Shown in pieces: positions 5,310-50,919 of a stretch of 64,000 nucleotides of DNA (position 1 is the first letter of the stretch; each line of letters begins with the position of its first letter). The stretch spans positions 1 through 64,000 of the forward strand of contig JAFYPU010000002.1 in the NCBI GenBank assembly GCA_017547385.1. The letters run 5' to 3'. The translations under genes were made by a program, and so were the position numbers. The notes under the pieces are model-generated. The model ran no database searches and was not told where the DNA came from. It saw only the letters and a list, made by a program, of their open reading frames with translations. The DNA is from Bacteroidaceae bacterium (GTDB lineage: Bacteria; Bacteroidota; Bacteroidia; Bacteroidales; Bacteroidaceae).

Positions 5310-5393
5310 TCTAAACGCCTTGCAGAAAATTCTACTCGGCGTTTAGAAAATTCTACTCGGCGTTTAGAAAAATCTGCAAGGCGTTTAGATTTT
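5310..5393. repeat. 21-bp module array, site A (four modules)
   Basis: Modules at 5310-5330, 5331-5351, 5352-5372 and 5373-5393. Their 17-bp words are TCTAAACGCCTTGCAGA, TCTACTCGGCGTTTAGA (twice) and TCTGCAAGGCGTTTAGA, each followed by a 4-base A/T linker. The first and last words are reverse complements, so the array can fold back on itself. Confidence 0.85.
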
Positions 5394-5496
5394 CCTGCAT
5401 CGGCCTCCCCTTTTCAGGCTTCGTCTTTCCGTTTTCAGAGACCGAATTCCAGAGCACATTATGGCATCTCATAACCCCAAATTCACTATTTTTTCA

Positions 5497-5581
5497 TAAG
5501 ATAGGATGCGGCTCGGGAAACTTCCGAACAATTTCGCAAGCTCATTGTCTCACTTTCCGCTCGCCTTTCACTATCTTTGCA
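5497..5581 (+). repeat. Promoter-carrying dispersed repeat, copy P2
   Basis: Inverted copy of P1 (2452-2542). It runs from ATAAGATAGGATGCGGCTCG through TTTCGCAAGCTCATTG to TTTCACTATCTTTGC. Its plus-strand end supplies the -7 box for the epimerase gene. Confidence 0.7.
5572..5579 (+). promoter_or_regulatory. -7 box upstream of the epimerase-PAP2 pair
   Basis: TATCTTTG, a full match to TAnnTTTG, 82 bp before the ATG at 5661 and inside repeat P2. Confidence 0.6.
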
Positions 5582-5660
5582 CGGTTAAATCCTTACCCGT
5601 GTTTTTTGAGTGCGATAGCTGCATTTGTCTTCACAACGGTAAGGCAGATATTTCCCATTC

Positions 5661-6710
5661 ATGAATTTAACAGACAAGCACATACTCATCACCGGAGCCA
5701 GCGGATTTATCGGTAGTTTCATCGTCGAACGCGCCTTGGCTCTCGGAGCCACTGTGTGGGCAGCTGTGCGCCGCACGAGCAGCCGCCGCTATTTGCAGGA
5801 TGCACGTATCCGTTTCATCGAATTGGATTTGGGAAACGAGTTCCGCTTGCGAGAACAGTTGGAAGCACACAAAAAAACTGTGGGCGCATGGCACTTTGTG
5901 GTACATGCCGCCGGTGCCACCAAGTGTCGCAAGGCCGATGATTTCTTCCGTATCAACACGGACGGAACAGAACGATTGGCACGTTTGCTCCTATCCACGA
6001 ACACTTTGCAAGGACGTTTCGTCTTTATCAGTTCGCTCAGTGTTTATGGAGCTGTGCGCGAGAAATACGTGAGCACCTCGGGCAAAAACGGGCTCAACTA
6101 CGCTCCCATTCTGGAAAGCGACACACCACGTCCCAATACGGCTTACGGCCGCTCCAAATTGGAAGCTGAAGAACGATTGGCGCATATTCCCGATTTGAAC
6201 TACGTCGTGCTGCGCCCCACCGGCGTTTACGGACCGCGCGAACGCGACTATTTTCTCATGGCCAAGAGCATTGCTTCACACATCGACTTTTCCGTGGGTT
6301 ACAAACCGCAGGAGCTGACTTTCATCTACGTTCACGACCTTGTGGAAGCTGTGATGCTGGCACTGAAACGCGGTGGCGTGGGTCGCTCCTACTTCCTGAC
6401 CGACGGGGGTGTGTATTCCAGTCGCACTTTCTCCGATTTGCTGCAAAGCGAAATGCAGGTGCGTCATGTGCTGCATCTGAAGGCACCCCTCTGCGTGTTG
6501 CGTCTGATTTGCGCCATTGCCGGATGGGGAGCCGGCCTGTGCGGACGCACCTCTACCCTCAATATGGACAAATTTCACATCATGCGCCAACGCAATTGGC
6601 AGTGCGACATCGAACCGGCACGCCGAGAGTTGGGTTACGCCCCACAATATCCGCTCGATCGGGGTGTGGCAGAAACCGTCGCGTGGTATAAACAAGAAAA
6701 ATGGATTTAG
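5661..6710 (+). CDS. NAD(P)-dependent epimerase/dehydratase (extended SDR)
   Basis: A 349-residue short-chain dehydrogenase of the extended type. The Rossmann motif TGASGFIGS lies at residues 11-19, the catalytic Ser region VFISSLSVYG at 121-130 and the YxxxK motif at Tyr162-Lys166 (AYGRSK). The C terminus ends AETVAWYKQEKWI, as in 3-beta-HSD/dihydroflavonol-reductase-like members. Its last 10 bases overlap the start of the PAP2-type gene, so the two are translated together. That neighbour suggests a lipid substrate; one Bacteroides SDR has been reported as a 3-ketosphinganine reductase, and this could be a relative. This is inference, and a sugar-nucleotide substrate is equally possible from the fold alone. 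Confidence 0.75.
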   Translation: MNLTDKHILITGASGFIGSFIVERALALGATVWAAVRRTSSRRYLQDARIRFIELDLGNEFRLREQLEAHKKTVGAWHFVVHAAGATKCRKADDFFRINTDGTERLARLLLSTNTLQGRFVFISSLSVYGAVREKYVSTSGKNGLNYAPILESDTPRPNTAYGRSKLEAEERLAHIPDLNYVVLRPTGVYGPRERDYFLMAKSIASHIDFSVGYKPQELTFIYVHDLVEAVMLALKRGGVGRSYFLTDGGVYSSRTFSDLLQSEMQVRHVLHLKAPLCVLRLICAIAGWGAGLCGRTSTLNMDKFHIMRQRNWQCDIEPARRELGYAPQYPLDRGVAETVAWYKQEKWI

Positions 6711-7678
6711 AATTACTCGAACAGAAACCGCGTTTGCGCGGATGGCTGGCCATTGAATGGGCCACTTTTGCCTATACTGCTTTCACAGCAGTGCTCATCG
6801 GATGTATGTGGAACACACTGAAAAATCCGGTTGACATGCTCATCGGTCGCGCATTCGTTATGGGTGGCATGGCATTGACTTTCGGTTTGTACAAAGCGTT
6901 TCCCGGTTCGGCCACACGCTTTTTGCGCAATCTCTTCCCCCTCACCCTGCTGGCTTATTGGTATCCCGACACTTATGAATTCTGTCAGTGCTTCGGCAAC
7001 CTCGACCCCATCTTCGCCCAAGCCGATGCCACACTCTTCGGCTGCCAACCCTCGTTGGAATTCAGCCGATGGGCAGACAGCAAGTTTTGGAGCGAAACTT
7101 TCCACATGGGTTATTTTGCCTACTACCCCCTGATTTTCCTCACCGCGCTCGCGCCCTTGTTCACCGACAAGCATCGTTTCGAACCCACGGCCTTTGTCAT
7201 ATTGGCGAGTTTCCTGTGCTATTATCTCATCTATCTGTTCCTGCCCGTGGCCGGCCCACAATACTATTTCCAAGCCACCGGTACAGATATCATCGAGGCC
7301 GGAACGTTCCCCGAAGTGGGCGACTGGTTCCGCCACAACACCGAGATGCGTCCTTCACCGGGGCAAGAGGGATTGTTCCGCACACTGGTGGAAGGTTCGC
7401 AAGCCTCAGGCGAACGCCCCACTGCGGCTTTCCCAAGTTCGCACGTCGGCATCAGCACCGTCCTGCTCCTTTTGTTGTGGAAGAACAATCGTTGGCTGTT
7501 TTTCTGCGTGCTTCCCTTCTATTTCGCCCTTTGTGGTGCTACCGTTTACATCGAAGCCCACTATCTCATCGATGTGTTTGGCGGATGGATTTCGGCACTT
7601 CTTTTCTACAAACTCACCACCTGCATTTATCGCCGATGGGGACAACCGCGCGAAATCGCCGTTGCGACAACGCAATAA
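6701..7678 (+). CDS. PAP2-family membrane enzyme, inositol-phosphorylceramide-synthase-like
   Basis: A 325-residue integral membrane protein with about six hydrophobic segments. The PAP2 signature histidine motifs are both present: FPSSHVG (244-250) and AHYLIDVFGG (286-295). The spacing and the HYLID block resemble the PAP2_3/AUR1 group, which transfers a phospho-headgroup to ceramide, but a lipid phosphatase would show the same residues. The classical first motif KX6RP is not evident, as is usual for the AUR1 group. The gene starts 10 bases inside the end of the upstream SDR gene, which implies coupled translation and a shared lipid pathway at the inner membrane. Confidence 0.7.
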   Translation: MDLELLEQKPRLRGWLAIEWATFAYTAFTAVLIGCMWNTLKNPVDMLIGRAFVMGGMALTFGLYKAFPGSATRFLRNLFPLTLLAYWYPDTYEFCQCFGNLDPIFAQADATLFGCQPSLEFSRWADSKFWSETFHMGYFAYYPLIFLTALAPLFTDKHRFEPTAFVILASFLCYYLIYLFLPVAGPQYYFQATGTDIIEAGTFPEVGDWFRHNTEMRPSPGQEGLFRTLVEGSQASGERPTAAFPSSHVGISTVLLLLLWKNNRWLFFCVLPFYFALCGATVYIEAHYLIDVFGGWISALLFYKLTTCIYRRWGQPREIAVATTQ

Positions 7679-7726
7679 GCCGGCAGATTTTTTCAAGGCA
7701 CACAATATATAAATATAATAAGCACT

Positions 7727-9121
7727 ATGAAACATTTTCTTCTCACTCTGATGATGGCCGTTCCCTTCTGCGGCATCACGGCTCAAAGCAACGATGGCGG
7801 CATTTCGCCTCAAATGCTTGAAAACATCCGCGGCTCACACGCAAACTCAGCTGCCGACCGTGCCCTCCGCAACGCTTTGGCCGCCAACAGCATCAACGAA
7901 TTGGCCGCCGTACAGGGTAACCCGGCTTCCACCGACACCTATTTCTCGCACCGCGTCGACTCTCGTGGCATCACCGACCAGAAGTCTTCAGGCCGCTGCT
8001 GGCTCTTCACCGGCATGAACGTGATGCGTGCCAAAGCCATTGCATGTTTCGGTCTGGGCGAATTCCAATTTTCTCAAAGCTATTCGTTCTTCTACGACCA
8101 GTTGGAAAAGAGCAACCTCTTCCTGCAAAGCATCATCGAAACCGCCAACCGCCCCATGGACGACCGTCTGGTGGAATGGCTCTTCAAGAACCCGCTTTCC
8201 GACGGAGGCCAGTTTACCGGTGTGCAGGACATTATCACAAAATACGGACTCGTTCCGGCCGAAGTGATGCCCGAAAGCCACGCTGCCAACAACACTTCGC
8301 GCATGGCTGAAATCATTTCCACAAAACTCCGCGAGTATGGACTCACTTTGCGCAATGCTGCCGAAAAAGGCGAGAAGCGCAAGCAGTTGTTGCAACGCAA
8401 AACAGAAATGCTCAGCACCGTTTACCACATCCTCAGCCTCTGCCTGGGCGAACCTCCCACCGAATTCGAATGGACACGTCGCACCCCCGATGGTCGTCCC
8501 GTGGAGACCAAGAAATATACTCCCCTCTCTTTCTATCAGGAATATGTGGGTGCTGATCTCAAAGGTGGATATGTGATGCTGATGAACGACCCCACACGTC
8601 CCTACCACAAGACTTACACCATTGACCTCGACCGCCACATGTACGATGGTGCCAACTGGACTTACATCAACCTGCCCATGGACGAAATCAAGGCCATGGC
8701 CATCGCCAGCATCAAGGACAGCGTGATGATGTATTTCTCCTGTGATGTAGGAAAATGCTACACAAAATCGGGCATCCTGAGCCTTGACAACTACGACTAT
8801 GCCTCACTCATGGGCACCGATTTCCCGATGAACAAAGCCGACCGCATACGCACCTATGCCTCAGCTTCAAGCCACGCCATGACACTGATGGCAGTGGACC
8901 TCAACAGCCAAGGAAATCCCACCAAATGGATGGTGGAAAACTCTTGGGGTCCGACTTCCGGCCACAAGGGCCACATCATCATGACCGACGATTGGTTTGA
9001 CGAATACATGTTCCGCCTTGTGGTGGAACGCAAGTATGTTCCTGCCGAAACATTGGAACTGCTCAAACAGAAACCTGTGAAACTCCCGGCTTGGGACCCC
9101 CTCTTTGCGCCCGAGCAGTAA
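7727..9121 (+). CDS. Secreted C1-family aminopeptidase (bleomycin hydrolase-like)
   Basis: A 464-residue papain-fold cysteine peptidase of the PepC/bleomycin hydrolase family. A signal peptide (MKHFLLTLMMAVPFCGITAQ) places it in the periplasm or beyond, unlike cytoplasmic PepC. The catalytic residues are Cys91 (SSGRCWLF), His383 (SSHAMTL) and Asn405 (VENSWG). The long insert between Cys and His is typical of the family. Family members form hexamers and trim N-terminal residues from peptides. The gene lies 48 bp after the PAP2 gene on the same strand and ends in a clear terminator, so it may be the last gene of that unit. No -7 box is evident in the short gap. Confidence 0.85.
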   Translation: MKHFLLTLMMAVPFCGITAQSNDGGISPQMLENIRGSHANSAADRALRNALAANSINELAAVQGNPASTDTYFSHRVDSRGITDQKSSGRCWLFTGMNVMRAKAIACFGLGEFQFSQSYSFFYDQLEKSNLFLQSIIETANRPMDDRLVEWLFKNPLSDGGQFTGVQDIITKYGLVPAEVMPESHAANNTSRMAEIISTKLREYGLTLRNAAEKGEKRKQLLQRKTEMLSTVYHILSLCLGEPPTEFEWTRRTPDGRPVETKKYTPLSFYQEYVGADLKGGYVMLMNDPTRPYHKTYTIDLDRHMYDGANWTYINLPMDEIKAMAIASIKDSVMMYFSCDVGKCYTKSGILSLDNYDYASLMGTDFPMNKADRIRTYASASSHAMTLMAVDLNSQGNPTKWMVENSWGPTSGHKGHIIMTDDWFDEYMFRLVVERKYVPAETLELLKQKPVKLPAWDPLFAPEQ

Positions 9122-9150
9122 GCCGTTGCGCACAGTTTTCAAACATAACA

Positions 9151-9188
9151 AAAACAGCCTGCCGAATTTGTTCATCGGCAGGCTGTTT
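9151..9188. terminator. Bidirectional terminator
   Basis: A perfect 15-bp stem, AAAACAGCCTGCCGA (9151-9165) with 9174-9188, has an 8-base loop and is followed by TTTTTG on the plus strand. It sits between the convergent C1-peptidase gene and murI. Confidence 0.85.
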
Positions 9189-9221
9189 TTGTTGGCATGA
9201 TATTTCGTTTTCCGTAAAGTC

Positions 9222-10085
9222 TTACAGGGTTATTTGCTCCACGGTTACATCCTCGTGCATAAAGAGAGCGGCACTCTCCTGGAACTTCGGCACGCTCTCG
9301 GTGGTGAGGTAATGACACGAAGCGCCTTTGGTGCAACGCGCCTCCATCTCCGGATGACGCTGCAGATAGTCGACCAGACTGGCTGCCACATATTCACCCT
9401 GCGCCATGATGCGTACACCAGCCGGAGTGTATTTCACAATTTTGTTCATCAACAGCGGATAGTGCGTACAAGCCAGCACAAGCGTGTCGATATCGGGGTC
9501 GAGACGCATAATGCGGTCAATGCGTTTCTTCACGAAATAGTCGGCACCCGGAGAGTCGAACTCATAATTTTCCACCAGAGGCACCCACATGGGGCAAGCC
9601 TGTCCGGTGAGAATGATGTCGGGGTCTTGTTTGCGCACCTCCATGCCGTAAGAACCAGAATTGATGGTGCCTTCGGTGGCCAGCACTCCTACGTGGCGCG
9701 ACTTTGTGAGCGAACCGATGGCTTCCACCGTGGGACGGATAATGCCCAACACGCGACGATTCGGGTCCATCTTGGGAAGGTCGCGTTGCTGAATGGTTCG
9801 CAATGCCTTGGCCGATGCCGTGTTGCAAGCCAATATCACCAGATGACAACCGCGATTGAAGAGTGCCTCGACGGCTTGCAGGGTGTACTGATAGACCACT
9901 TCAAACGAGTGACCGCCGTAAGGAGCACGCGCATTGTCGCCCAGATAAATGTAATCGTAGTCGGGCATATACTGGCGTATCTGACGCAAAATGGTGAGTC
10001 CGCCGTAACCGGAATCGAATACACCGATGGGACCTGGAGCTTGCGACAAAGCGGAAGCGATTTCGGGATTAAGTTTTTCTGTCAT
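9222..10085 (-). CDS. murI: Glutamate racemase
   Basis: A 287-residue cytoplasmic enzyme that makes D-glutamate for peptidoglycan. The two catalytic cysteines are in ACNTAS (Cys87) and ACTHYPLL (Cys206). The substrate-binding motifs GVFDSGYGGLTIL (21-33) and YLGDNARAPYG (47-57) are intact. It starts 4 bases after the stop of the OmpH-like gene, so the two form an operon. Confidence 0.95.
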   Translation of the reverse strand: MTEKLNPEIASALSQAPGPIGVFDSGYGGLTILRQIRQYMPDYDYIYLGDNARAPYGGHSFEVVYQYTLQAVEALFNRGCHLVILACNTASAKALRTIQQRDLPKMDPNRRVLGIIRPTVEAIGSLTKSRHVGVLATEGTINSGSYGMEVRKQDPDIILTGQACPMWVPLVENYEFDSPGADYFVKKRIDRIMRLDPDIDTLVLACTHYPLLMNKIVKYTPAGVRIMAQGEYVAASLVDYLQRHPEMEARCTKGASCHYLTTESVPKFQESAALFMHEDVTVEQITL

Positions 10086-10089
10086 GCTT

Positions 10090-10617
10090 TCAGGGTTTTG
10101 TGGCCGTTAGTTTTTCAAGAATGAAAGGCGTGGCATCTTCTGCCACCTGGGGGTGGAGGAACAGGTAAGTGCGTTCATCGGTGTTCACCACATATCCGTA
10201 GCCACGCTCCAAGCCTACGGCACTCACCGCACTGTCGAGACGGGCACGCAGCGGAGCCATGAGGTCGCGCTCGGCTGCCCGAAGCAGACTGTCGGCTGCC
10301 TGACGGAAAGCCAACCCTTTCTCCATTGCATCCTGCAGGTCGCGCTGACGTTTCAGCAAAATGTTTTGAGGAAAATCCTTCTGTCCTTGCAAAAATTCGG
10401 CGAACATGCGCTTGAATGAAGTCTCGTTATAGCGAGCTTCGGCCTCGTATTTCGTTTTCAATTCGTTCATCTGAACTTGCACTTCGCTGTATTCAGGCAT
10501 CAGCTGAAGCAGTCCGTTGTAACTGGCATAGCCAAAGCGAACATGGCCCTGCGCCATAGCAGAAAAAACACCGCAGGCAGCCATTATCAAACACAATGTG
10601 AACAGACGTTTCATCAT
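10090..10617 (-). CDS. OmpH/Skp-like periplasmic protein
   Basis: A 175-residue exported protein. The signal peptide is MMKRLFTLCLIMAACGVFSA, cleaved after MAQ. The mature part opens GHVRFGYASYNGLL and continues as a long charged helix (YSEVQVQMNELKTKYEAEARYNE), then RQAADSLLRAAERDLMAPLRARLDSAVSAV, as in Skp/OmpH chaperones that hold outer-membrane proteins in the periplasm. It pairs with murI, an arrangement seen in other Bacteroidales. ATG at 10617 (MM) or 10614 are both possible. The longer frame to 10662 has no conserved residues and would overlap the promoter. Confidence 0.75.
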   Translation of the reverse strand: MMKRLFTLCLIMAACGVFSAMAQGHVRFGYASYNGLLQLMPEYSEVQVQMNELKTKYEAEARYNETSFKRMFAEFLQGQKDFPQNILLKRQRDLQDAMEKGLAFRQAADSLLRAAERDLMAPLRARLDSAVSAVGLERGYGYVVNTDERTYLFLHPQVAEDATPFILEKLTATKP

Positions 10618-10659
10618 TTCTCGTTGGTTTTTGATGCGTTTAAAACTTATTGAACGCTG

Positions 10660-10667
10660 CAAAATTA
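10660..10667 (-). promoter_or_regulatory. -7 box upstream of ompH-murI
   Basis: CAAAATTA on the plus strand reads TAATTTTG on the minus strand, 42 bp upstream of the start. Confidence 0.5.
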
Positions 10668-10796
10668 CGACTTTATTCCCAACCGCATACTTGTGTTTTG
10701 CCTAAAATTAAAGAAAACCACCCTTTTAGAAACTTCAAAACGCAAGGAACAAATGTCCCAACACAATGCATCTCCCCCACTCCGCAACGGCCACAA

Positions 10797-10859
10797 ATCC
10801 GCAAGCACTGCAGAATTTTCTGCAAGGCGTTTAGAAAATTCTGCAGTGCTTGTAAAAAA
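10797..10859. repeat. 21-bp module array, site B (three modules)
   Basis: Modules of 21 bp whose words are TCCGCAAGCACTGCAGA, TCTGCAAGGCGTTTAGA and TCTGCAGTGCTTGTAAA. The array touches the stop codon of the rhodanese gene (10861-10863). The first and third words are near reverse complements. Confidence 0.85.
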
Positions 10860-10860
10860 A

Positions 10861-11268
10861 TCAAGGCTCGACGAGGCGGCCTTCCTGCCTCCACACCAAG
10901 ATACCTCCCTTGAGGTTGACAACCTTGAAACCCTCTTTCTGCAAGAGTTCCGCCGCACGAAGACTGCGCCGACCGCTCCGACAATAAACGGCAATGGTCT
11001 TGCCGCGTGGGAGCAAACGTCGCACGGCTGTTTGAAAGGTGTCAGAATTCACGTCGATGAGAAGTGCGCCTCGCAGGTGTGCCTCGGCATACTCACCGGC
11101 TGTACGCACATCCAACAAAAGCGTGTTTTCACCGTTGGAAAGTACCTCGGCAAACTCCTCTACACCGACATCGGAGAGTGAACCTGTCTTCGGAACGCTG
11201 TGTGATGCACAGGCAGATAAGCCCATCAAAAGCGAGAAAAAGGCAAGGGCGAACGTGTTTTTCTTCAT
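10861..11268 (-). CDS. Rhodanese-domain lipoprotein
   Basis: A 135-residue single-domain sulfurtransferase anchored as a lipoprotein. The signal ends in the lipobox LSAC with Cys20. The rhodanese fold shows LLDVRTAGEYAEAHLRGA (51-68) and the catalytic loop VYCRSGRRS with Cys96. The C terminus has the usual GGILVWRQEG. The exact sulfur acceptor in the periplasm is unknown. It is the third gene of a probable operon (permease, SGNH esterase, rhodanese; gap about 50 bp). An ATG two codons upstream at 11274 is an alternative start. Confidence 0.82.
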   Translation of the reverse strand: MKKNTFALAFFSLLMGLSACASHSVPKTGSLSDVGVEEFAEVLSNGENTLLLDVRTAGEYAEAHLRGALLIDVNSDTFQTAVRRLLPRGKTIAVYCRSGRRSLRAAELLQKEGFKVVNLKGGILVWRQEGRLVEP

Positions 11269-11320
11269 TAACATTTTCTTTATATTGCTATGATGCACTG
11301 ATTTCTCCACCGATATATCA

Positions 11321-15200: not shown

Positions 15201-15237
15201 GGGCGAAGCCAAATGCCCGAAGACTTCATAGAAAAAC

Positions 15238-15321
15238 CGGTAAGGCTTGCCAAAAAAGTGGCAGGCCTTGCCAAAAAAACGGCAAGCACTGCCAAAATAC
15301 TGGCAAGGCCTGCCAGTATTT
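15238..15321. repeat. 21-bp module array, site C (variant vocabulary, four modules)
   Basis: Four 21-bp modules (15238, 15259, 15280, 15301). The cores are GGTAAGGCTTGCC, GGCAGGCCTTGCC, GGCAAGCACTGCC and GGCAAGGCCTGCC, separated by A/T-rich linkers such as AAAAAAAC. Period and layout are those of the other arrays, and the core GCAAGCACTGC is shared. The arms are GGC...GCC instead of TCT...AGA. Confidence 0.8.
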
Positions 15322-21108: not shown

Positions 21109-21171
21109 TCTGCAGTGCTTGCAGAATTTTCCGCAGTGCTTGTAGAAAATTCTGCAAGCACTGCGGAAAAT
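21109..21171. repeat. 21-bp module array, site D (three modules)
   Basis: Words TCTGCAGTGCTTGCAGA (21109), TCCGCAGTGCTTGTAGA (21130) and TCTGCAAGCACTGCGGA (21151), on an exact 21-bp period. The preceding 21 bases (21088-21108, with GCAAGGCGCGAAAA) look like a decayed fourth module. Confidence 0.85.
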
Positions 21172-28327: not shown

Positions 28328-28390
28328 TCTACTCGGCGTTTAGAAATTTCTACAAGCACTGCAGAAAATTCTAAACGCCGAGTAAATTTT
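28328..28390. repeat. 21-bp module array, site E (three modules)
   Basis: Words TCTACTCGGCGTTTAGA (28328), TCTACAAGCACTGCAGA (28349) and TCTAAACGCCGAGTAAA (28370). The outer two are reverse complements. The reverse complement of 28407-28426 gives the shared leader box TGACACTTTG, read on the minus strand. Confidence 0.85.
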
Positions 28391-28413: not shown

Positions 28414-28450
28414 CAGCAAAGTGTCAGCAAAATGGTCGGTGCACGCGAAA

Positions 28451-33593: not shown

Positions 33594-33688
33594 GTGCAAG
33601 GCAAACGGAAAACGTTGAAGGGCCACAGGCAATGCGTTATGATTTTTCTGACACTTTGCCGAAAAAACACGAATTTGCTGCGCAAAAA

Positions 33689-33751
33689 TCTACAAGGCGT
33701 TTAGAAATTTCTGCAAGCACTGCAGAAAATTCTGCAAGGCGTGCGCAAAAT
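33689..33751. repeat. 21-bp module array, site F (three modules)
   Basis: Words TCTACAAGGCGTTTAGA (33689), TCTGCAAGCACTGCAGA (33710) and TCTGCAAGGCGTGCGCA (33731, decayed 3' half). The leader box TGACACTTTGCCGAAAAAAC is at 33649-33668. Confidence 0.85.
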
Positions 33752-38019: not shown

Positions 38020-38134
38020 AGGCAATAATCTTGAAGCACCAAACAAAAACTCTGTTTTCAGTGCAGTTGCCTCACCGGGGCTTGTGGTTTTTGCTTACAC
38101 TTTGTCGGAAAAACGGCTCTGCGGCGTGCAAAAA

Positions 38135-38197
38135 TCTACAAGGCGTTTAGAAATTTCTGCAGTGCTTGCAGAATTTTTTGCAGTGCTTGCAGAAAAT
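38135..38197. repeat. 21-bp module array, site G (three modules)
   Basis: Words TCTACAAGGCGTTTAGA (38135), TCTGCAGTGCTTGCAGA (38156) and TTTGCAGTGCTTGCAGA (38177). The leader ACACTTTGTCGGAAAAAC ends at 38114. Confidence 0.85.
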
Positions 38198-40614: not shown

Positions 40615-40677
40615 TTTACAAGGCGTTTAGAATTTTCTGCAGTGCTTGTAGAAATTTCTAAACGCCTTGCAGATTTT
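40615..40677. repeat. 21-bp module array, site H (three modules)
   Basis: Words TTTACAAGGCGTTTAGA (40615), TCTGCAGTGCTTGTAGA (40636) and TCTAAACGCCTTGCAGA (40657). The outer words are reverse complements. The leader box TGACACTTTGTCGGAAAAAC is at 40575-40594. Confidence 0.85.
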
Positions 40678-43281: not shown

Positions 43282-43344
43282 TCTACAAGGCGTTTAGAAA
43301 TTTCTGCAGTGCTTGCAGAAATTTCTAAACGCCTTACTGAAAAA
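43282..43344. repeat. 21-bp module array, site I (three modules)
   Basis: Words TCTACAAGGCGTTTAGA (43282), TCTGCAGTGCTTGCAGA (43303) and TCTAAACGCCTTACTGA (43324, decayed 3' end). Order is a, c, a-reverse, as at sites H and J. Confidence 0.85.
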
Positions 43345-43373: not shown

Positions 43374-44921
43374 CTATGCCCCGCGTTCAGCCCAGTCTCC
43401 CCGATCCAGATTGCGATATCCCACGGCTTCGGCAATGTGGTGGGAAAGAACGTTGTGCGAAGCGTCAAGGTCGGCAATGGTGCGAGCCACTTTCAATATG
43501 CGACTGTAAGCACGCGCTGAGAGTTTGAGGCGTTCCATGGCCGTGCGAAGCATTTCCAACCCCCTTTGGCCGGGACGGGCATACTCTTCCAGCATTTTCT
43601 CCGTCATCTGCGCATTGCAGTGAACGCCTTTGTGATTTTTGAAACGTTCTTCCTGAATTTTTCGGGCCGCCACCACACGCTCGCGGATGGCTTCACTCTT
43701 CTCACCGGGTTGGGCTTGCGAAATTTCTGAAAACGGCACGGCATCGATTTCACACTGTATGTCGATACGGTCGAGCAACGGACCACTGATGCGGTTCAGA
43801 TAACGCTGAATCTGCCCGGGCGTGCAAACGCAGCGGTGTGCCGGATCGCCGTAATAACCACAAGGGCAGGGATTCATCGAGGCCACGAACATGAACGAAC
43901 AGGGATAGTCAACACTGTACTTCGCACGGTTGATGCTGATTTTGCGATCCTCAAGCGGCTGACGCATCACTTCAAGAACGGGACGGCTGAACTCAGGCAA
44001 CTCATCGCAAAACAGCACTCCGTTGTGGGCTAACGAGATTTCGCCGGGTTGAGGATTGGTTCCGCCTCCCACAAGCGCCACATTGGAGATGGTATGGTGA
44101 GGTGCGCGGAAAGGGCGCTCGGTGATGAGCGACACGTTCTGGTTGAGTTTTCCGGCCACGGAGTGAATGAGCGTTGTTTCCAGACTCTCGGCCAGTGTGA
44201 GCGGTGGCAGAATGGTGGGAATGCGCTTTGCCATCATGCTCTTTCCGCATCCGGGACTGCCGACAAGCATCAGATTATGCCCACCGGCAGCTGCCACCTC
44301 TATGGCGCGCTTCACGTTCTCCTGCCCTTTCACATCAGCAAAGTCAATGGTGTGATGTCCCTGTGCGGCGAAAAATTCCTTACGTGTGTCGCAGGTGGTG
44401 GGTTCGAGCACATGCCGCCCGTTCAGATGGTCCACCACTTCGCTCAGACAGCTCACGCCATACACCTTGAGGCGGTTGACAACCACGGCTTCGCGCACAT
44501 TTTCTTTCGGAACGAACAAACATTCATAGCCTTCGCTTCGGGCTTTTATGGCCATGGCCAGAGCCCCTTTCACGGGGCGTATGCTGCCGTCCAAACCCAA
44601 TTCGCCGGTAAACACACACTTCTCCAACGCTTCGGTGGGCACCAGGTGCGAAGCCGCAAGCAGTCCCACCGCCAGCGGAAGGTCATAACCACTCCCCTCT
44701 TTGCGCACATCCGCCGGCGCAAAGTTGACAGTGATTTTGGCTTCGCGCAGATGGTATCCCGAACTGAACAAGGCACTTTCCACGCGCGTTCTGCTTTCAC
44801 GCACTGCGTTGTCGGGAAGTCCCACCATGAAGAATTCTTTTCCCGGCAGGGTGTTTATCTCGATGAAAACGGGCATGGCGGAAAGTCCGTTGACCGCGGA
44901 GCTGTTTACTTTTACCAACAT
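43374..44921 (-). CDS. comM: ComM/YifB-family Mg-chelatase-like AAA+ ATPase
   Basis: A 515-residue cytoplasmic ATPase. The N-terminal domain has the Lon-substrate-like fold of the ComM family (residues 1-170, NGLSAMPVFIEINTLPG and GLPDNAVRESRTRVESAL). The Walker A motif is GSPGCGKS (221-228), with a sensor region ELPEFSRPVLEVMRQPLEDR. A zinc-binding insert MNPCPCGYYGDPAHRC follows, and a C-terminal helical domain ends VLSHHIAEAVGYR. ComM is a helicase that promotes branch migration during natural transformation in Vibrio; its role in Bacteroidota is not established. It is 76 bp downstream of the exchanger gene, probably in one operon. Confidence 0.9.
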   Translation of the reverse strand: MLVKVNSSAVNGLSAMPVFIEINTLPGKEFFMVGLPDNAVRESRTRVESALFSSGYHLREAKITVNFAPADVRKEGSGYDLPLAVGLLAASHLVPTEALEKCVFTGELGLDGSIRPVKGALAMAIKARSEGYECLFVPKENVREAVVVNRLKVYGVSCLSEVVDHLNGRHVLEPTTCDTRKEFFAAQGHHTIDFADVKGQENVKRAIEVAAAGGHNLMLVGSPGCGKSMMAKRIPTILPPLTLAESLETTLIHSVAGKLNQNVSLITERPFRAPHHTISNVALVGGGTNPQPGEISLAHNGVLFCDELPEFSRPVLEVMRQPLEDRKISINRAKYSVDYPCSFMFVASMNPCPCGYYGDPAHRCVCTPGQIQRYLNRISGPLLDRIDIQCEIDAVPFSEISQAQPGEKSEAIRERVVAARKIQEERFKNHKGVHCNAQMTEKMLEEYARPGQRGLEMLRTAMERLKLSARAYSRILKVARTIADLDASHNVLSHHIAEAVGYRNLDRGDWAERGA

Positions 44922-44997
44922 AGAAAATTGAGGATTGGAAGCGTATTTTTCCTGAACGATGAAAGTGTCTTGGGAAAACTTCTACGAAAATGCAGCA

Positions 44998-46659
44998 TCA
45001 AGTGAACCACATCATCACCACCACTTGCGCTATCACCACTCGCAGGAACATGCACAGGGGATAGACCGTGGCATACGAAACCGAGGCTTTGTCGCCCGGA
45101 ATCACGTCGTTGACATATCCCAACGCGATGGGGTTGGCCATAGCTCCACAGAGCATTCCAGCGGTAGAGGCTACGGTTTTTCCGGACCATTTCACCGAAA
45201 TCACAGCCAGCAGTATCACGGGCACCAATGTGATGAGCAATCCGTAAGCAATCCACCACAAGGCGCGGGGCTGCATCACGGTTTCCACAAAGTCGGCACC
45301 GGCCGCCAGGCCTAGGCAGGCCAGATAGATGGAAAGCCCGAGCGAACGCAGCATCAGGTTGGCCGAAGTTGTGGTGTAAGCCACCATGTGGAAACGAGGC
45401 CCGAAGGCACCGATAAGAATACCCATGATAATCGGGCCTCCTGCAAGACCGAGTCGCACCGGATAACTGATGCCCGGGAACTCGATGGGCAGACAACCAA
45501 GCACCAATCCAAGCACAATGCCTATGAAGATGGTTACCATGTTGGGCTCGTCGAGATGCTTCACGGCATTTCCGAGTTCTTTGGCCACGCGCTTCAGACT
45601 TTCCTGCTCGCCCACCACGGTTACGCGGTCGCCCACGCGAAGTGTGAGCTGCGGAGTGGCAACCAACTGAATGCCGGCACGCTGCACGCGGCTCACATTC
45701 ACGCCATAGCGGTTGCGCAGATGAAGGTCGCCCAGGTGCTTTCCGTTGATGGATGGGCGGGTGATGAGAATGCGCTGCGACACTAATTTGCTGTCCAAAG
45801 CATTCCAGTCGATGTTCTGTTTGTTCCAATCGGTGTCGTCAATGCTTCCGAAGAAAATGGTGAGCTGTTCCACAAATCGCTGCTGTGTGATGACAAGCAC
45901 GCGGTCGCCCTCCTCAATCACGGTTTCGGCCGTCGGGAGAATCACCTTGCCACTTCGCCAAATGCGCGACACCACGAATTTGCTTTCGTCAAAGCCTGCC
46001 ACCTCGTGCAGACTGCGATGAAAGACGGCCGGATTGCGCACTTGGAAGGAAGCGATGAAGGCTTCTTTTTCCTTGCTGCGATCCACTTGCGGCTTCTCGC
46101 GACGCACCAACCATCCCTTCATGATGATGAATGCCAGAATCACACCGACCAATCCCAGCGGATAAGTTACGGCGCAGCTGAGTGCCGCCACCGAATCGGG
46201 CTGCCCCAATTGTTTGAGCGTTTGTTGCGCTGCACCGAGTGCCGGAGTGTTGGTGGTGGCTCCGCAAAGCACTCCCATCATGTCGGGAAGCTCGGCTTGC
46301 CCAACCCAAACCGGAATGAGGGCCATGAGTGTGCCAAGCAGCACCACGCCCAAGGAGAGCAACGTGAGGTCACGCCCACCGATGCGGAACGAGCTGATGA
46401 AGCCCGGACCCACCTGCAGGCCGAGCGTATAGACAAACAGCACCAAGCCGAAGCTTTCGGCATATCCCAACATTGCAGGGTCAAGGCTCAAGCCCAGGCT
46501 TCCTGCCAAAATTCCGATAAAAAAGACGAAGGTAACACCCAGTGTGATACCGCGAAAACGAATCTTGCCAAGGCTCAAACCTATGGCGCATATCAAACTT
46601 ATGATAATCACAGCCTGCACTGCGCTGTGCGAAAGAAATGTGTCTTGCAACCAGTTCAT
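44998..46659 (-). CDS. AspT/YidE-type exchanger with two RCK_C domains
   Basis: A 553-residue membrane protein of the aspartate:alanine exchanger family. Two blocks of about five helices (residues 10-180 and 385-553) each carry the AspT duplication motif: GVLCGATTNTPALGAAQ in the first and TAGMLCGAMANPIALGYV in the second. Between them lie two soluble RCK_C (TrkA-C) domains (about 205-290 and 295-375, with VIEEGDRVLVITQ and LRVGDRVTVVGEQESLKRV). The gut AspT-type proteins may exchange aspartate or succinate-type acids; the substrate here is not known. It precedes comM. Repeat P6 supplies its -7 box. Confidence 0.85.
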   Translation of the reverse strand: MNWLQDTFLSHSAVQAVIIISLICAIGLSLGKIRFRGITLGVTFVFFIGILAGSLGLSLDPAMLGYAESFGLVLFVYTLGLQVGPGFISSFRIGGRDLTLLSLGVVLLGTLMALIPVWVGQAELPDMMGVLCGATTNTPALGAAQQTLKQLGQPDSVAALSCAVTYPLGLVGVILAFIIMKGWLVRREKPQVDRSKEKEAFIASFQVRNPAVFHRSLHEVAGFDESKFVVSRIWRSGKVILPTAETVIEEGDRVLVITQQRFVEQLTIFFGSIDDTDWNKQNIDWNALDSKLVSQRILITRPSINGKHLGDLHLRNRYGVNVSRVQRAGIQLVATPQLTLRVGDRVTVVGEQESLKRVAKELGNAVKHLDEPNMVTIFIGIVLGLVLGCLPIEFPGISYPVRLGLAGGPIIMGILIGAFGPRFHMVAYTTTSANLMLRSLGLSIYLACLGLAAGADFVETVMQPRALWWIAYGLLITLVPVILLAVISVKWSGKTVASTAGMLCGAMANPIALGYVNDVIPGDKASVSYATVYPLCMFLRVVIAQVVVMMWFT

Positions 46660-46696
46660 AAATTTCCTGTATTGTTGCCGATTTTTCTATTTGCGG

Positions 46697-46760
46697 ACAA
46701 AGTTAGTGCAAGGCGAGAGCAAGACAAAATAAAAACCGAGAAAACTTCTCAGCCGGCTCC
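46697..46760 (-). repeat. Promoter-carrying dispersed repeat, copy P6
   Basis: ACAAAGTTAGTGCAAGGCGA starts the element, and the ACCGAGAAAACTTCTCAGCC end corresponds to the CGAGCC end of P1-P3. It is shorter than the other copies. Confidence 0.5.
46698..46705 (-). promoter_or_regulatory. -7 box upstream of the exchanger-comM pair
   Basis: CAAAGTTA, TAACTTTG on the minus strand, 39 bp upstream of the ATG at 46659. Confidence 0.55.
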
Positions 46761-46791
46761 TTTGCAATTCACCCCCCTGTTTGCATAAAAA

Positions 46792-46854
46792 CGCGCAAGG
46801 CGTTTAGAAATTTCTGCAGTGCTTGCAGAAATTTCTAAACGCCTTGTAGATTTT
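46792..46854. repeat. 21-bp module array, site J (three modules)
   Basis: Words CGCGCAAGGCGTTTAGA (46792), TCTGCAGTGCTTGCAGA (46813) and TCTAAACGCCTTGTAGA (46834). The outer words are reverse complements, and the middle word is itself nearly palindromic. Confidence 0.85.
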
Positions 46855-46919
46855 CGCCCATCGCATGGCTGAAAAACAGCTATGCCGGGCGGATATTGCA
46901 GAGGCCTTTCGTGAGCCTT

Positions 46920-49900
46920 TTATGCCTTGTGTGCTTCCACCCAACGGCGTGCATTGACAAAGGCTTCCATCCACGGTGTTACGTCATCGCCCTTGCGCTC
47001 TGCCGGATAGTACGGGTTCTGCCAGGGGAAGAAAGCGCGTTCGAGGTGAGGCATCATGGCGAGATGACGACCATCGGGGCTGGCAATTCCGGCCACCGAG
47101 TAGCGGCTTCCGTTGGGGTTGCCGGGATATTCGTCGTAAGAGTATTTCAACACCACGTTGTATTGATCCTCATCCAAAGGCAAGTCGAACTTACCTTCAC
47201 CGTGTGCCACCCAAATGCCGAGGCGATCACCGCTGAGCGAACCGAACATCACGCTGCGGTTGGTGGTAACCGTAACACCCACAAAGGCACTCTCGAACTT
47301 GTGGCTGTCGTTGTGAAGCATGTGCGTGCGCTTGCTGTGCTCGGGATTGATGAGACCGAGTTCCACCATCAGCTGACAACCATTGCAGACACCGAGCGAG
47401 AGTGTGTCGGGACGGGCATAGAAGCGGTCGAGGGCAGCTTTGGCCTTGGGATTATAGAGGAAAGCACCGGCCCAGCCTTTGGCGGAACCAAGCACGTCGC
47501 TATTGGAGAAGCCGCCGCAGAACACAATCATGTTGATATCGTCCAGCGTTTCGCGGCCGGTGATGAGGTCTGTCATCATCACGTCCTTAACATCGAAGCC
47601 GGCAAGATAGAGCGCATAAGCCATTTCGCGCTCGCCATTGGTACCCTTCTCACGAATGATGGCGGCACGCACACCGCTCGGCGTGCGACGTTCGGGCGTA
47701 ATGCCGAGGTTGTCGAAAGTGCCCTTCCATTCGGGACGCAGATGGAATTCGAGCGGTTGCTGCTTGTAGTTCTCGAAACGCTTCTTTGCGCAACCGTGGA
47801 AACTCTGCTTCGTGTCGAGCATATAGGAAGTGGAGTACCAAACATCGCGCAAGTGATCGATGCCGAACTGATAGGTGGCCTCATCTTTTTCCACCAGAAT
47901 GTGGCGTTCGTCGGTGGGACGACCCAATTTGACATAAGCAACACCGGCTTCGTCGAGCACTTGCTTGAATTCAGCCTTCTTGCTGTCGGCCACCTGCACC
48001 ACAACGCCAGGATTTTCGGCGAAGAGTGCCTTCACGAGGTCGGCTTTCTTGAAACCGTCGAGCGACACTTCAATACCGCCTTCGGTGTTGGCAAAACACA
48101 TTTCCAAAAGGCAGGTGATGAGACCGCCGGCGCTGACATCGTGACCGGCCAGCAAGAGTCCGTTGCTCACGAGCTGCTGCACGGCATTGAAGGCATCGCG
48201 GAAATAGTCGGGGTTCTTAACTCCGGGAACATCGCTGCCCACGAAGCCGAGGCTTTGCGCAAAGGCCGAACCGCCAAGACGGAGTTCGTCAAACGAGAAG
48301 TCGATGTGATAGAAACTGCTCTTCGGTTCGTTCACCGCAACGGGCGAAACCACCTTGCGGATGTCGCTCACTTCACCTCCCGAGCTGACAATCACGGTTC
48401 CCGGAGAAATGATTTTCTCACCGCCGGGATATTTTTGAGTCATCGAGAGAGAGTCCTTACCGGTGGGCACGTTAATCTTCAGAGCGCAGCAGAAATCGCT
48501 CAACGCCTGAACACCGCGATAGAGACGGGCGTCCTCGCCCTTCTGCGAGCGGCAGGGCCACATCCAGTTGGCAGACAGGCTGACGCTGTCCAAGCCCTCA
48601 GCCAGCGGTGCCCAAACGAGGTTGGTCAGACTCTCGGAAACGGCCAACACAGAACCGGCAGCGGGGTCTGCCAATCCGGCTTGCGGGGCATGACCGATGG
48701 CTGTAGCGATACCGGCACGGCCTCTGTAATCAAGTGCCACCACTCCGCAGTCGGCCAAAGGCAGTTGCAATTCGCCTTGCGTCTGTTGCTGAGCCACCTT
48801 ACCGGTAACGGAACGGTCCACCTTGTTGGTAAGCCAATCCTTACATGCCACGGCTTCGAGCTGAAGCACGTTGCTGAGGTATGTATCTACGTTGGCAACG
48901 TCGTACTCAACGTTCTTATAATTTCTTTCAACGCTCTCGTCCACCATCACCGTCTTGGGCGAATGTCCGAACATCTGAGCCACATCAAGGTCGAAGGGAC
49001 GCACACCGTCGGCTTGTTGGAAGGCAAAATGCGCGTCTCCCGTTGTTTCACCCACCACATACATCGGAGCACGTTCGCGCTCGGCGATGCGGCGCACGTG
49101 TTCCAAGTGCTCTTCCTGAATAAGCAAGCCCATACGTTCCTGACTCTCGTTGGCGATGATTTCCTTCGCAGAGAGCGTGGGGTCGCCCACGGGGAGTTGC
49201 GACATGTCAATGAGGCCGCCGCATTCTTCCACAAGTTCTGAAAGGCAGTTCACGTGGCCGGCGCTTCCATGGTCGTGGATGGAAACCACGGGATTGACAT
49301 CCTCTTCGCAGAGCGCACGCACCAAGTTGTTGGCACGCTTCTGCATTTCGGGGTTGGCACGCTGCACAGCATTGAGTTCAATGCCGGAACTGTAGCGTCC
49401 TGTATCGACAGATGACACTGAGCCACCGCCCAATCCGATGCGGTAGTTGTCGCCACCCACCATCACAACCTTGTTTCCTTTCTTGGGTTCTCCCTTCAAG
49501 CAGTCGCGCTTCGTGCCATATCCCACTCCACCGGCCAACATGATAACCTTGTCGTAACCATATCGCTCACCGTTTTCCTGGTGTTCGAAAGTGAGCACCG
49601 AACCGGTGATGAGGGGTTGTCCGAATTTGTTACCGAAGTCGGAAGCTCCATTAGAGGCCTTGATGAGGATTTGTTCGGGTGTTTGATAGAGCCACTGACG
49701 CACGGGCAGAATGTCTTCCCAGTCGCGGCCACCGTCCAAACGGGGGTAAGAAGTCATGTAAACGGCTGTTCCGGCAATGGGCCATGAACCTACACCGCCA
49801 CCCATACGGTCGCGGATTTCGCCACCGGTACCGGTGGAAGCTCCGTTGAAGGGTTCGACTGTGGTGGGGAAGTTGTGTGTTTCTGCTTTCAGCGAGATAA

Positions 49901-50621
49901 CGCTTTCGATGTCCTTGACGACAAAATAGTCGCTCGTGGAGTGATCCTTCGGAGCAAACTGTTCGACCACGGGACCGGCAGAGAAAGCCACGTTGTCCTT
50001 ATAGGCAGAAAGAATCTTGTGCGGATTCTCGTTCGTAGTCTTCTTAATCATGGCGAAGAGTGAGGAGGGCATTTCCTCACCATCGATGATGAATGTTCCG
50101 CCAAAGATTTTGTGGCGGCAGTGCTCAGAGTTGATTTGTGCAAAACCAAACACCTCAGAGTCTGTGAGCTTGCGACCGAGTTGTGCTTCCACACCATGCA
50201 GATATTCGATTTCTGCGGGCGAAAGTGCCAAGCCTTCGGCTTCGTTGTAAGTCTCAAGATCGTCGATAAACTCAATAGCGGCAGGTTTGAGGTCGATAGT
50301 GAAAATTTCTTGGTTCAAACCCTCATACATGCGCTGCAACATGGGATCGTGCTCCGCTGCAGCATCAGCCACGGGGAAAAACTCCTCGATGCGTGTAATG
50401 CCTTGCAGATTCATGTTCTGCGTGATTTCTACGGCATTGGTACTCCAGGGAGTAATCATTTCACGGCGCGGACCAACGAAGAATCCGTCAAGGGTGTCGC
50501 TTTCCACCAATTCGGCTTCGCCATAAAGCCAACAGAGTTCGCTCACTTCGTCAGCGGAGAGCACATGGTCCACCTGTGTGGCGATGATGCTCTTCTGCGG
50601 GGTTTTGAAGAATAGAATCAT
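46920..50621 (-). CDS. purL: Phosphoribosylformylglycinamidine synthase (long form)
   Basis: A 1,233-residue fused FGAM synthase, the fourth step of purine synthesis, converting FGAR, glutamine and ATP to FGAM. Start at 50621 (MILFFKTPQKSIIATQ), as in other Bacteroidales; the longer frame to 50735 would cover the -7 box. The N-terminal PurS-like domain is followed by two AIRS-like halves (NSEHCRHKIFGG, VGYGTKRDC, GVGSWPIAGTAVYMTSYPR). A C-terminal glutaminase domain has its nucleophile Cys1079 in GVCNGCQLM and a His in WVAHGEGKF. It is monocistronic, with array J after it and array K before it. Confidence 0.95.
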   Translation of the reverse strand: MILFFKTPQKSIIATQVDHVLSADEVSELCWLYGEAELVESDTLDGFFVGPRREMITPWSTNAVEITQNMNLQGITRIEEFFPVADAAAEHDPMLQRMYEGLNQEIFTIDLKPAAIEFIDDLETYNEAEGLALSPAEIEYLHGVEAQLGRKLTDSEVFGFAQINSEHCRHKIFGGTFIIDGEEMPSSLFAMIKKTTNENPHKILSAYKDNVAFSAGPVVEQFAPKDHSTSDYFVVKDIESVISLKAETHNFPTTVEPFNGASTGTGGEIRDRMGGGVGSWPIAGTAVYMTSYPRLDGGRDWEDILPVRQWLYQTPEQILIKASNGASDFGNKFGQPLITGSVLTFEHQENGERYGYDKVIMLAGGVGYGTKRDCLKGEPKKGNKVVMVGGDNYRIGLGGGSVSSVDTGRYSSGIELNAVQRANPEMQKRANNLVRALCEEDVNPVVSIHDHGSAGHVNCLSELVEECGGLIDMSQLPVGDPTLSAKEIIANESQERMGLLIQEEHLEHVRRIAERERAPMYVVGETTGDAHFAFQQADGVRPFDLDVAQMFGHSPKTVMVDESVERNYKNVEYDVANVDTYLSNVLQLEAVACKDWLTNKVDRSVTGKVAQQQTQGELQLPLADCGVVALDYRGRAGIATAIGHAPQAGLADPAAGSVLAVSESLTNLVWAPLAEGLDSVSLSANWMWPCRSQKGEDARLYRGVQALSDFCCALKINVPTGKDSLSMTQKYPGGEKIISPGTVIVSSGGEVSDIRKVVSPVAVNEPKSSFYHIDFSFDELRLGGSAFAQSLGFVGSDVPGVKNPDYFRDAFNAVQQLVSNGLLLAGHDVSAGGLITCLLEMCFANTEGGIEVSLDGFKKADLVKALFAENPGVVVQVADSKKAEFKQVLDEAGVAYVKLGRPTDERHILVEKDEATYQFGIDHLRDVWYSTSYMLDTKQSFHGCAKKRFENYKQQPLEFHLRPEWKGTFDNLGITPERRTPSGVRAAIIREKGTNGEREMAYALYLAGFDVKDVMMTDLITGRETLDDINMIVFCGGFSNSDVLGSAKGWAGAFLYNPKAKAALDRFYARPDTLSLGVCNGCQLMVELGLINPEHSKRTHMLHNDSHKFESAFVGVTVTTNRSVMFGSLSGDRLGIWVAHGEGKFDLPLDEDQYNVVLKYSYDEYPGNPNGSRYSVAGIASPDGRHLAMMPHLERAFFPWQNPYYPAERKGDDVTPWMEAFVNARRWVEAHKA

Positions 50622-50709
50622 ATCTTTATCGTGATTTTGTTTGTTTTGTTGCAGAGATAAGATTTTTGCAGGAGCTTTATGGTTTTTCAGCCATACCACC
50701 CATTCTCTG

Positions 50710-50717
50710 CAAAAATA
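50710..50717 (-). promoter_or_regulatory. -7 box upstream of purL
   Basis: CAAAAATA, TATTTTTG on the minus strand, 89 bp upstream of the ATG at 50621. Confidence 0.5.
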
Positions 50718-50856
50718 CGACATTGACACAGACATACCAAGTTTTCAGCCGAAAGATTTGCAAGCAGCCCACAGAGAGAAGAATGAAAGAAGCAAAAGAA
50801 GCCTCCCCGACACACCTGCAGGAAGCTGCCAAACAAGCAAAGGCATTGGGCAAAAA

Positions 50857-50919
50857 TCCGCAAGGCGTTTAGAATTTTCTACAAGCACTGCAGAATTTTC
50901 TAAACGCCTTGCAGATTTT
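50857..50919. repeat. 21-bp module array, site K (three modules)
   Basis: Words TCCGCAAGGCGTTTAGA (50857), TCTACAAGCACTGCAGA (50878) and TCTAAACGCCTTGCAGA (50899). Same outer words as H-J, with the middle word in the opposite orientation. It is the last array in the window. Confidence 0.85.

What the first reader, a model, noticed from the sequence alone, without database searches (positions are those of the whole stretch)
5310..50919. Eleven intergenic arrays of 21-bp modules built from a small set of 17-bp words
Eleven intergenic sites (5310, 10797, 15238, 21109, 28328, 33689, 38135, 40615, 43282, 46792, 50857) each hold three or four units on a strict 21-bp period, two helical turns. Each unit is a 17-bp word starting TCT and ending AGA plus a 4-base A/T linker. 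Apart from site C, words are variants of only three: a = TCTGCAAGGCGTTTAGA, b = TCTACTCGGCGTTTAGA, c = TCTGCAGTGCTTGCAGA, each used in either orientation. Orders seen: a'bba, c'ac, ccc', bc'b', ac'a, acc, aca' (three times), ac'a'. The arrays occur between divergent, convergent and co-directional genes, none is inside a gene, and all lie in 5-51 kb. They are neither CRISPR nor simple terminators. A DNA-binding or recombination role, or a structured element substrate, is possible; the words do not match any family I know.
Basis: seen in the sequence. Interest (0 to 1): 0.85.

Follow-up and report, generated by a model that had tools for sequence, protein, structure and literature searches.

The report
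Curved-DNA repeat modules between genes
A gut bacterium carries many short, strongly bent DNA modules, at most one per gap between genes in the part examined, built on an exact 21-base beat that related species keep while using different letters, which points to an undescribed way of shaping or partitioning the chromosome.

Summary
In 1.22 Mb (52%) of the window's genome I find 115 three-word, 2 four-word and 9 two-word arrays; 244 of 245 steps are exactly 21 bp; one Markov resample of the same sequence gave none. None lies inside a called gene. The words are the centre of a longer object, about 126 bp: a comb of A-tracts on a 21-bp (two-turn) beat. Linkers obey the A-tract rule (1 TpA in 230, 42.9 expected) and the two linkers of an array do not covary, so duplex curvature rather than a hairpin appears conserved. 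Predicted bend is 97 degrees, against 42 for other intergenic DNA and 22-25 when re-spaced. All 125 placeable modules sit in different gaps (16-20 doubled gaps expected) and are evenly spaced. They are not depleted between divergent genes, though word choice differs by gene context. Six congeners show the 21-bp geometry with different words. Best explanation: curved modules with three dyad protein sites acting as nucleoid or supercoil anchors between transcription units, perhaps spread as REP/BIME-like repeats. The protein is unknown; nothing was tested at the bench.

The parts
5310..5389 (.). Four-word array a' b b a, between divergent genes
10798..10856 (.). Three-word array c' a c, codirectional gap; 4 bp from the called gene 10861-11268 (-)
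15232..15317 (.). Variant four-unit array (site C), arms GGCA..TGCC, A-tracts on the same 21-bp beat
   Evidence: phased score 5.37
21109..21167 (.). Array c c c', divergent gap
28328..28386 (-). Array b c' b', convergent gap
28417..28427 (-). Type I end (CTGACACTTTG) of the array at 28328, on its right side
33648..33658 (+). Type I end (CTGACACTTTG) of the array at 33689
33689..33747 (+). Array a c' a, codirectional gap
38094..38104 (+). Type I end (CTTACACTTTG) of the array at 38135
38135..38193 (+). Array a c c, divergent gap; same word order at the orthologous site of locus L039
40574..40584 (+). Type I end (ATGACACTTTG) of the array at 40615
40615..40673 (+). Array a c a', convergent gap; in L039 both outer words are changed together to d..d'
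43282..43340 (.). Array a c a', convergent gap
46792..46850 (.). Array a c a', codirectional gap
50857..50915 (.). Array a c' a', codirectional gap

Best explanation
Each array is the centre of an intrinsically curved duplex-DNA module of about 126 bp. About five to six A-tracts sit on a 21-bp beat (two helical turns), so their small bends add up to roughly 90-100 degrees. Between the tracts lie three 17-bp partly palindromic words, most simply read as sites for a dimeric DNA-binding protein on one face of the bend. Modules stand singly in gaps between genes, about every 9 kb, regardless of gene direction. I propose that they work as nucleoid-architecture sites: a curved anchor that pins the tip of a supercoil (plectoneme) and/or seeds a nucleoprotein complex, so that neighbouring transcription units are topologically separated. 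Shown by computation: geometry, A-tract rule, predicted curvature, placement, even spacing, and the same geometry with other words in congeners. Inferred: the protein, the pinning or insulating role, and selection as the cause of the even spacing.
For: Linkers: 225 of 230 are AAAA/AAAT/AATT/ATTT/TTTT; a TpA step inside the linker occurs in 1 of 230 against 42.9 expected if positions were independent. The two linkers of one array are independent (p = 0.60; 3 x 3 table of the 90 of 115 arrays with the three commonest linkers), so they are not selected as paired arms. A-tract centres form a comb at about -24, -2, 18, 40, 60 and 82 from the core start (64-115 of 115 arrays per 3 bp), with weaker teeth at -65, -46 and 103 (23-26; outer background median 8); the summed phase peaks at 10.5 bp per turn among the seven periods tried. 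Wedge-model bend 96.6 degrees for 115 elements, 42.3 for 2,242 other intergenic windows, 32.1 for 464 genic windows, 32.4 for shuffled elements, 22.4 and 24.7 when units are re-spaced to 26 and 16 bp. Placement: 125 modules in 125 different gaps, 16-20 gaps with two or more expected; spacing CV 0.66 against null means 1.04-1.22 and 0.85; counts per class of gap follow available length (divergent/codirectional/convergent 38/64/23, expected 36.0/70.9/18.1, p = 0.34). At 37 orthologous pairs sites keep their own outer word types (51 of 74 labels, permutation mean 25.7, 0 of 2,000 permutations reach it). Six congeners show the 21-bp spacing with other words. Published single-molecule work finds plectonemes pinned by curvature, with a model that needs highly curved DNA over about 73 bp (PMC6301789, abstract and section 9 read).
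Against: No binding protein was identified and no binding or topology measured. The wedge parameters were recalled; the parameter-free phase score agrees, but 2.2% of other intergenic windows reach the element median on it. Between G000 and its relatives the outer A-tract at 23-25 bp keeps 54-79% identity on the left (24 pairs; neighbours 17-58%) but shows no such peak on the right (23 pairs; 43-52%). In congeners the arrays were found by their linkers, so their curvature is partly built in, and it is weaker in G016 (61 degrees) and G047 (58); the G048, G030, G047, G089 and part of the G005 loci were fetched around pattern hits, only G016 and most G005 stretches were not. Outer words are reverse complements more often than chance, which curvature does not need. 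Word choice depends on gene context: palindromic arrays with a/b/d outer words make up 14 of 23 convergent but 5 of 38 divergent arrays (p = 0.00016); a/b/d words face gene 3' ends 67:33 but 5' ends 59:69 (p = 0.002), and terminating flanks have TTTT in 71% against 58% (p = 0.05). 9 of 46 orthologous gaps lack an array in the relative, one of them with a degenerate one. Only 1 gap with arrays in both G000 and a distant congener was found, among 35 usable.
Confidence: 0.48

Rival explanations
1. A non-autonomous interspersed repeat (REP/BIME- or MITE-like) that was copied around the genome by a transposase acting in trans and is now mostly fixed; curvature and palindromy are transposition features.
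For: Many dispersed intergenic copies of a few words; species-specific words as in REPs; an outer motif CTGACACTTTG on one side of 49 and both sides of 1 of 114 arrays, at a fixed offset (28 bp from the core for 30 of 37 nearby matches at up to 2 mismatches; 40 further matches lie far from arrays); oriented modules follow GC skew in G000 (38 of 50; 25 of 29 in divergent or convergent gaps, 13 of 21 in codirectional ones), which replication-coupled single-strand transposition could cause (recalled); a few copies share longer flanks.
Against: The one Y1 transposase gene found in G000 has no array within 1 kb (one 3-mismatch word in a neighbouring gene; nearest array about 2.9 kb away), and G005 and G016, which have arrays, have no Y1_Tnp match. 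No matching repeat at the other end in 113 of 114. No clean empty site among the 9 gaps without an array (by eye). One-per-gap, even placement is not expected of random insertion. Skew polarity in G008 plus L039 was 10 of 14, p = 0.09 one-sided. One module or core gave no match in phages, plasmids or viral contigs.
Confidence: 0.3
2. Bidirectional intrinsic terminators: outer words pair into a long stem followed by a T-tract.
For: Outer words reverse complementary more often than chance; flanking AAAA..TTTT; mean RNA fold energies -29.9 to -34.7 kcal/mol; palindromic a/b/d arrays in 14 of 23 convergent, 26 of 64 codirectional and 5 of 38 divergent gaps; a/b/d words and T-tracts favour terminating sides.
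Against: Divergent gaps are not depleted (38 of 96 gaps of 70 bp or more hold one, 64 of 363 codirectional, 23 of 93 convergent). Fold energy does not differ significantly by context (p = 0.15 and 0.20). 58% of non-terminating flanks still carry TTTT. Linkers do not covary. The longest G048 arrays are head-to-tail copies of one word.
Confidence: 0.12
3. Operators of one global transcription factor (three tandem dimer sites per regulated promoter).
For: 17-bp partly palindromic words (inner 5 pairs: 2.3-4.0 matched against about 1.3 for shuffled words in 5 of 7 genomes, two of them with only 3-4 words; G030 1.7 and G048 1.3), 21-bp spacing, none inside genes of G000.
Against: 23 modules lie between convergent genes where no promoter is expected; median distance to the next start in codirectional gaps is 236 bp; words differ completely between congeners.
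Confidence: 0.1

Closest known systems
REP / BIME elements with RAYT transposases (PMC2817692; listing abstract and passages seen)
   Same: High-copy intergenic, palindromic, species-specific repeats in mixed orientation at regular spacing; described as binding IHF, gyrase and DNA polymerase I.
   Different: Units here are 17-bp words on an exact 21-bp beat with A-tract linkers; the one Y1 transposase gene of G000 is not flanked by the words; arrays occur in G005 and G016 without a Y1 match.
BrickBuilt MITE of Porphyromonas gingivalis (PMC4596501; abstract and passages seen)
   Same: A Bacteroidales intergenic element with a short tandem unit and leader/tail segments.
   Different: 23-nt unit of unrelated sequence, 19 copies in ATCC 33277, terminal repeats shared with IS elements (GAGACCTTTGCA); here 21 bp, about 240 copies by extrapolation from 126 in 1.22 Mb, no matching pair of terminal repeats.
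Curvature-pinned plectonemes and phased A-tracts (PMC6301789 abstract and section 9; PMC3940949 start of abstract in a listing)
   Same: Curved DNA upstream of transcription units; A-tracts phased with the helix.
   Different: There a statistical, non-repeated signal; here packed into a discrete repeated module with fixed words.
DNA uptake sequences of Neisseriaceae/Pasteurellaceae (recalled)
   Same: Genome-wide, species-specific dialects.
   Different: Uptake words also occur singly and in genes (recalled); here single words are near the resample level and none of 126 arrays is inside a gene.

Membership tests
REP/BIME (RAYT-linked) | High-copy intergenic palindromic repeats in mixed orientation | tested here: met
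REP/BIME (RAYT-linked) | A rayt gene flanked by the repeats in the same genome | tested here: not met
   One Y1_Tnp gene in G000 (C21:52498-52833), no array within 1 kb; none found in G005 and G016. The G008 gene's flanks and the genomes G030, G047, G048, G089 were not tested.
REP/BIME (RAYT-linked) | GTAG or CGTC tag at the palindrome foot (title of PMC3733652 in a listing) | not tested
   No such tag was looked for formally; none stands out in the flank profile.
MITE (including BrickBuilt) | Terminal inverted repeats at both ends | tested here: not met
   Type I motif at both ends in 1 of 114 arrays, at one end in 49.
MITE (including BrickBuilt) | Target-site duplications and ends shared with an IS element | not tested
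   No clean empty site among 9 gaps (by eye); no IS search made.
Intrinsic terminator | Restricted to gene 3' sides | tested here: not met
   38 of 125 placed modules lie between divergent genes; word choice is nevertheless context-dependent.
CRISPR array | Identical repeats with unique spacers | tested here: not met
   The words recur genome-wide; between them lie only 4-bp linkers.
Known RNA family | Match to Rfam 15 at gathering score | tested here: not met
   0 matches in the window.
Intrinsically curved DNA | A-tracts without TpA, phased with the helical repeat | tested here: met
   (sequence only; no gel)

The most novel reading that the evidence does not exclude
A chromosome-wide 'one bend per gap' code: a fast-evolving dimeric DNA-binding protein, private to each Alloprevotella-like species, sits on three phased word sites of a pre-bent module between transcription units and fixes a supercoil tip there, acting as a topological insulator. 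The words and the protein co-diverge while the 21-bp bend geometry is kept, and modules exclude each other along the chromosome.
Probability: 0.22. Interest if true: 0.92.

Novelty: new variant of a known kind. Interest (0 to 1): 0.72.

Why it matters
What positions supercoil-domain borders in bacteria is an open question (recalled); here a genome appears to mark gaps between transcription units with a discrete, countable bend module that can be deleted or re-spaced by 5 bp to test the idea. The same geometry with other words in congeners separates bend from sequence recognition in a natural experiment. It also flags a repeat family that will confuse assembly of these gut genomes: five of six G048 loci examined are long arrays at contig ends.

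Tried and rejected
CRISPR, Rfam RNA, terminator, DNA-uptake and RAYT-REP readings were considered as listed. Hairpin selection: rejected as the main constraint because the two linkers do not covary and fold energy does not differ significantly by context; the context bias of palindromic a/b/d arrays (found when checking this report against its calls) speaks for a side role in termination, and for it I moved the terminator rival from 0.08 to 0.12 and the best explanation from 0.50 to 0.48. Whole-core inversion by a recombinase: rejected; of the ten pairs printed (nine flips plus pair 31), outer words keep the direct orientation better or equally in eight, and pairs 31 and 32 read better inverted there (32 is a poor match in either direction). 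Flips were 9 of 18 in palindromic and 0 of 5 in non-palindromic arrays with unchanged outer words (p = 0.12, not significant); 4 more flips occurred where outer words also changed. Conserved placement across distant congeners could not be decided: 35 usable orthologous gaps, 1 with arrays in both. Replication polarity: 26 of 30 strict cases with clear skew in G000, 10 of 14 in G008 plus L039, 6 of 10 without L039, whose skew is near zero; kept as a lead. Phages, plasmids and viral contigs gave no match to one module or core. Paper searches that showed no description of this family in their listings.
Full report
OBSERVATION. The eleven arrays are present as described. To see whether they mean anything I took 1.22 Mb of the window's own genome G000 (2.35 Mb, 34 contigs, 86.5% complete, and the window). 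Chains of words within 4 mismatches of four consensus words gave 115 triples, 2 quadruples and 9 doubles; 244 of 245 steps are 21 bp; one Markov resample of the same sequence gave no chain of two or more. Single words number 154 against 124 in the resample, so the word lives mainly in arrays. Extrapolated, the genome holds about 240. Later G000 counts use these 126 chains, or the 115 triples where a 59-bp core is needed; one chain at a contig edge could not be placed between genes, and 114 triples had enough flank for the end-motif counts.

PLACE. With a home-made gene caller (833 genes, 82% coding) none of 126 chains lies inside a gene. 64 lie in codirectional, 38 in divergent and 23 in convergent gaps. 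This is what available gap length predicts (p = 0.34), but all 125 lie in different gaps although 16-20 gaps should hold two or more, and distances between neighbours are more even than under the four placement models tried (CV 0.66; model means 0.85 to 1.22). Median distance to the next start in codirectional gaps is 236 bp, to the preceding gene's end 106 bp.

ANATOMY. The 59-bp core (three 17-bp words, two 4-bp linkers) is flanked by AAAAA and TTTTT, and more A-tracts continue on the same beat. In 50 of 114 arrays at least one side carries a motif like CTGACACTTTG, at offset 28 from the core end for 30 of 37 nearby matches of a 13-base version at up to 2 mismatches, giving an oriented module of about 126 bp. 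Linkers are of the form AnTm: ATTT 68, AATT 68, AAAT 66, AAAA 12, TTTT 11, other 5 of 230; a TpA step is seen once where 42.9 are expected. The two linkers of one array do not covary (p = 0.60, 90 arrays), which speaks against selection on a folded strand and for duplex A-tracts. Words are imperfect dyads in 5 of 7 genomes. Outer words tend to be reverse complements of each other, and a middle word of type c stands in either orientation.

CURVATURE. A wedge model with recalled parameters gives a mean end angle of 96.6 degrees for 115 elements, 42.3 for 2,242 other intergenic windows, 32.1 for 464 genic windows, 32.4 for shuffled elements, and 22.4 and 24.7 when the units are re-spaced to 26 and 16 bp. 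A score free of those parameters, the phase sum of A-tracts, is highest at 10.5 bp per turn: 4.84 against 1.97; 2.2% of other windows reach the element median.

RELATIVES. Word a at up to 2 mismatches is frequent only in G000 (166) and G008 (109) among 81 genomes; 22 others have 1 or 2. The bare geometry, AGAAWWTTCT-N11-AGAAWWTTCT with up to 1 mismatch, is found in G000 (162), G008 (97), G016 (55), G048 (55), G005 (19), G030 (9), G047 (7) and G089 (3), at most 2 in the other 50 members of the genus searched and at most 1 in each of the 62 genomes outside it; the reversed-pattern control gave one place in all. The words there are different: for example ACAAGTACTACGACAGA with TCTATCGCAGCGATAGA in G016, CCTACGTGCGTCGTAGG in G005, TCTAAGTAACGAGTAGA head to tail in G048. 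With a looser linker, centres lie 21 bp apart in 31 of 32 (G016), 68 of 80 (G005), 14 of 18 (G030), 4 of 4 (G047), 27 of 27 (G048), 3 of 4 (G089) and 161 of 176 (G000) pairs at spacings of 15-27 bp, but only 1 of 3 in twelve other Bacteroidales loci. G016 and most G005 stretches were taken blind; the other congener loci were fetched around pattern hits. The contig length of G089:C3 equals that of NZ_JACSUD010000003.1, Alloprevotella sp. Lung230, so the genus is probably Alloprevotella or close to it. Predicted curvature of the congener arrays is 58-115 degrees, partly by construction. Two of 25 arrays in G016, one of 31 in G005 and one of 3 in G089 fell inside genes called by the same caller, unlike G000.

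EVOLUTION. At 46 orthologous gaps (41 in G008, 5 in locus L039; surrounding DNA about 80-88% identical) 14 have the same word order, 23 a different one and 9 none. In 37 pairs where a core could be placed (gap 56, counted as none, included; eight gaps without a core and one doublet left out) words 1 and 3 are 85-87% identical against 74-76% for non-orthologous pairs, word 2 79% against 74%; the 30 bases on each side are 52% identical; the left outer A-tract stands out at 54-79% (24 pairs), the right one does not (23 pairs). Outer word types are inherited by site (51 of 74 labels match; permutation mean 25.7). So sites persist while their surroundings turn over. The middle word is flipped in 9 of 18 palindromic sites with unchanged outer words, and outer words mostly keep their direction. 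Loop inversion of a short palindrome is the simplest cause (inference).

MECHANISM. The best-supported part is physical: a bent module of defined size. Kim et al. (PMC6301789) report that intrinsic curvature pins plectonemes and that their model needs about 73 bp of highly curved DNA; a module of 105-126 bp with a bend near 100 degrees would qualify. Three dyad words on one face suggest protein dimers. One module per gap, indifference to gene direction and even spacing suit a topological border. The step from curvature to supercoil anchoring is inference, and no protein is known. Termination is at most part of it: palindromic arrays with a/b/d outer words are favoured in convergent gaps (14 of 23) over divergent ones (5 of 38; p = 0.00016), so at gene 3' ends the words may also serve as terminators, but 38 modules lie where no gene ends. 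A REP/BIME-like origin by copying is not excluded and would explain the species-private words and the skew polarity in G000 (38 of 50; 25 of 29 in gene-symmetric gaps), which was not confirmed in G008 plus L039 (10 of 14).

VERDICT. Real, genome-wide, more than chance, not matched to a described family in the searches made; a new variant of the interspersed intergenic repeat kind with an unusually clear structural rule.

Noticed in passing
L143-L147 (G048 contig ends): Head-to-tail arrays (up to 10 units seen) of TCTAAGTAACGAGTAGA at contig ends, where the assembly breaks.
   Followed up: partly
G000 C5:86680, C5:93412, C10:55053 and C20:51097: Modules whose right flank shares a further stretch of roughly 60 similar bases, perhaps a paralogous gene family's upstream region.
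   Followed up: no
G000, 50 oriented modules: Orientation of the CTGACACTTTG end follows GC skew more than gene direction; not confirmed in the smaller G008 plus L039 sample.
   Followed up: partly
window 15232-15317: Variant array with GGCA..TGCC arms on the same 21-bp A-tract beat; possibly a second word family in the same genome.
   Followed up: partly
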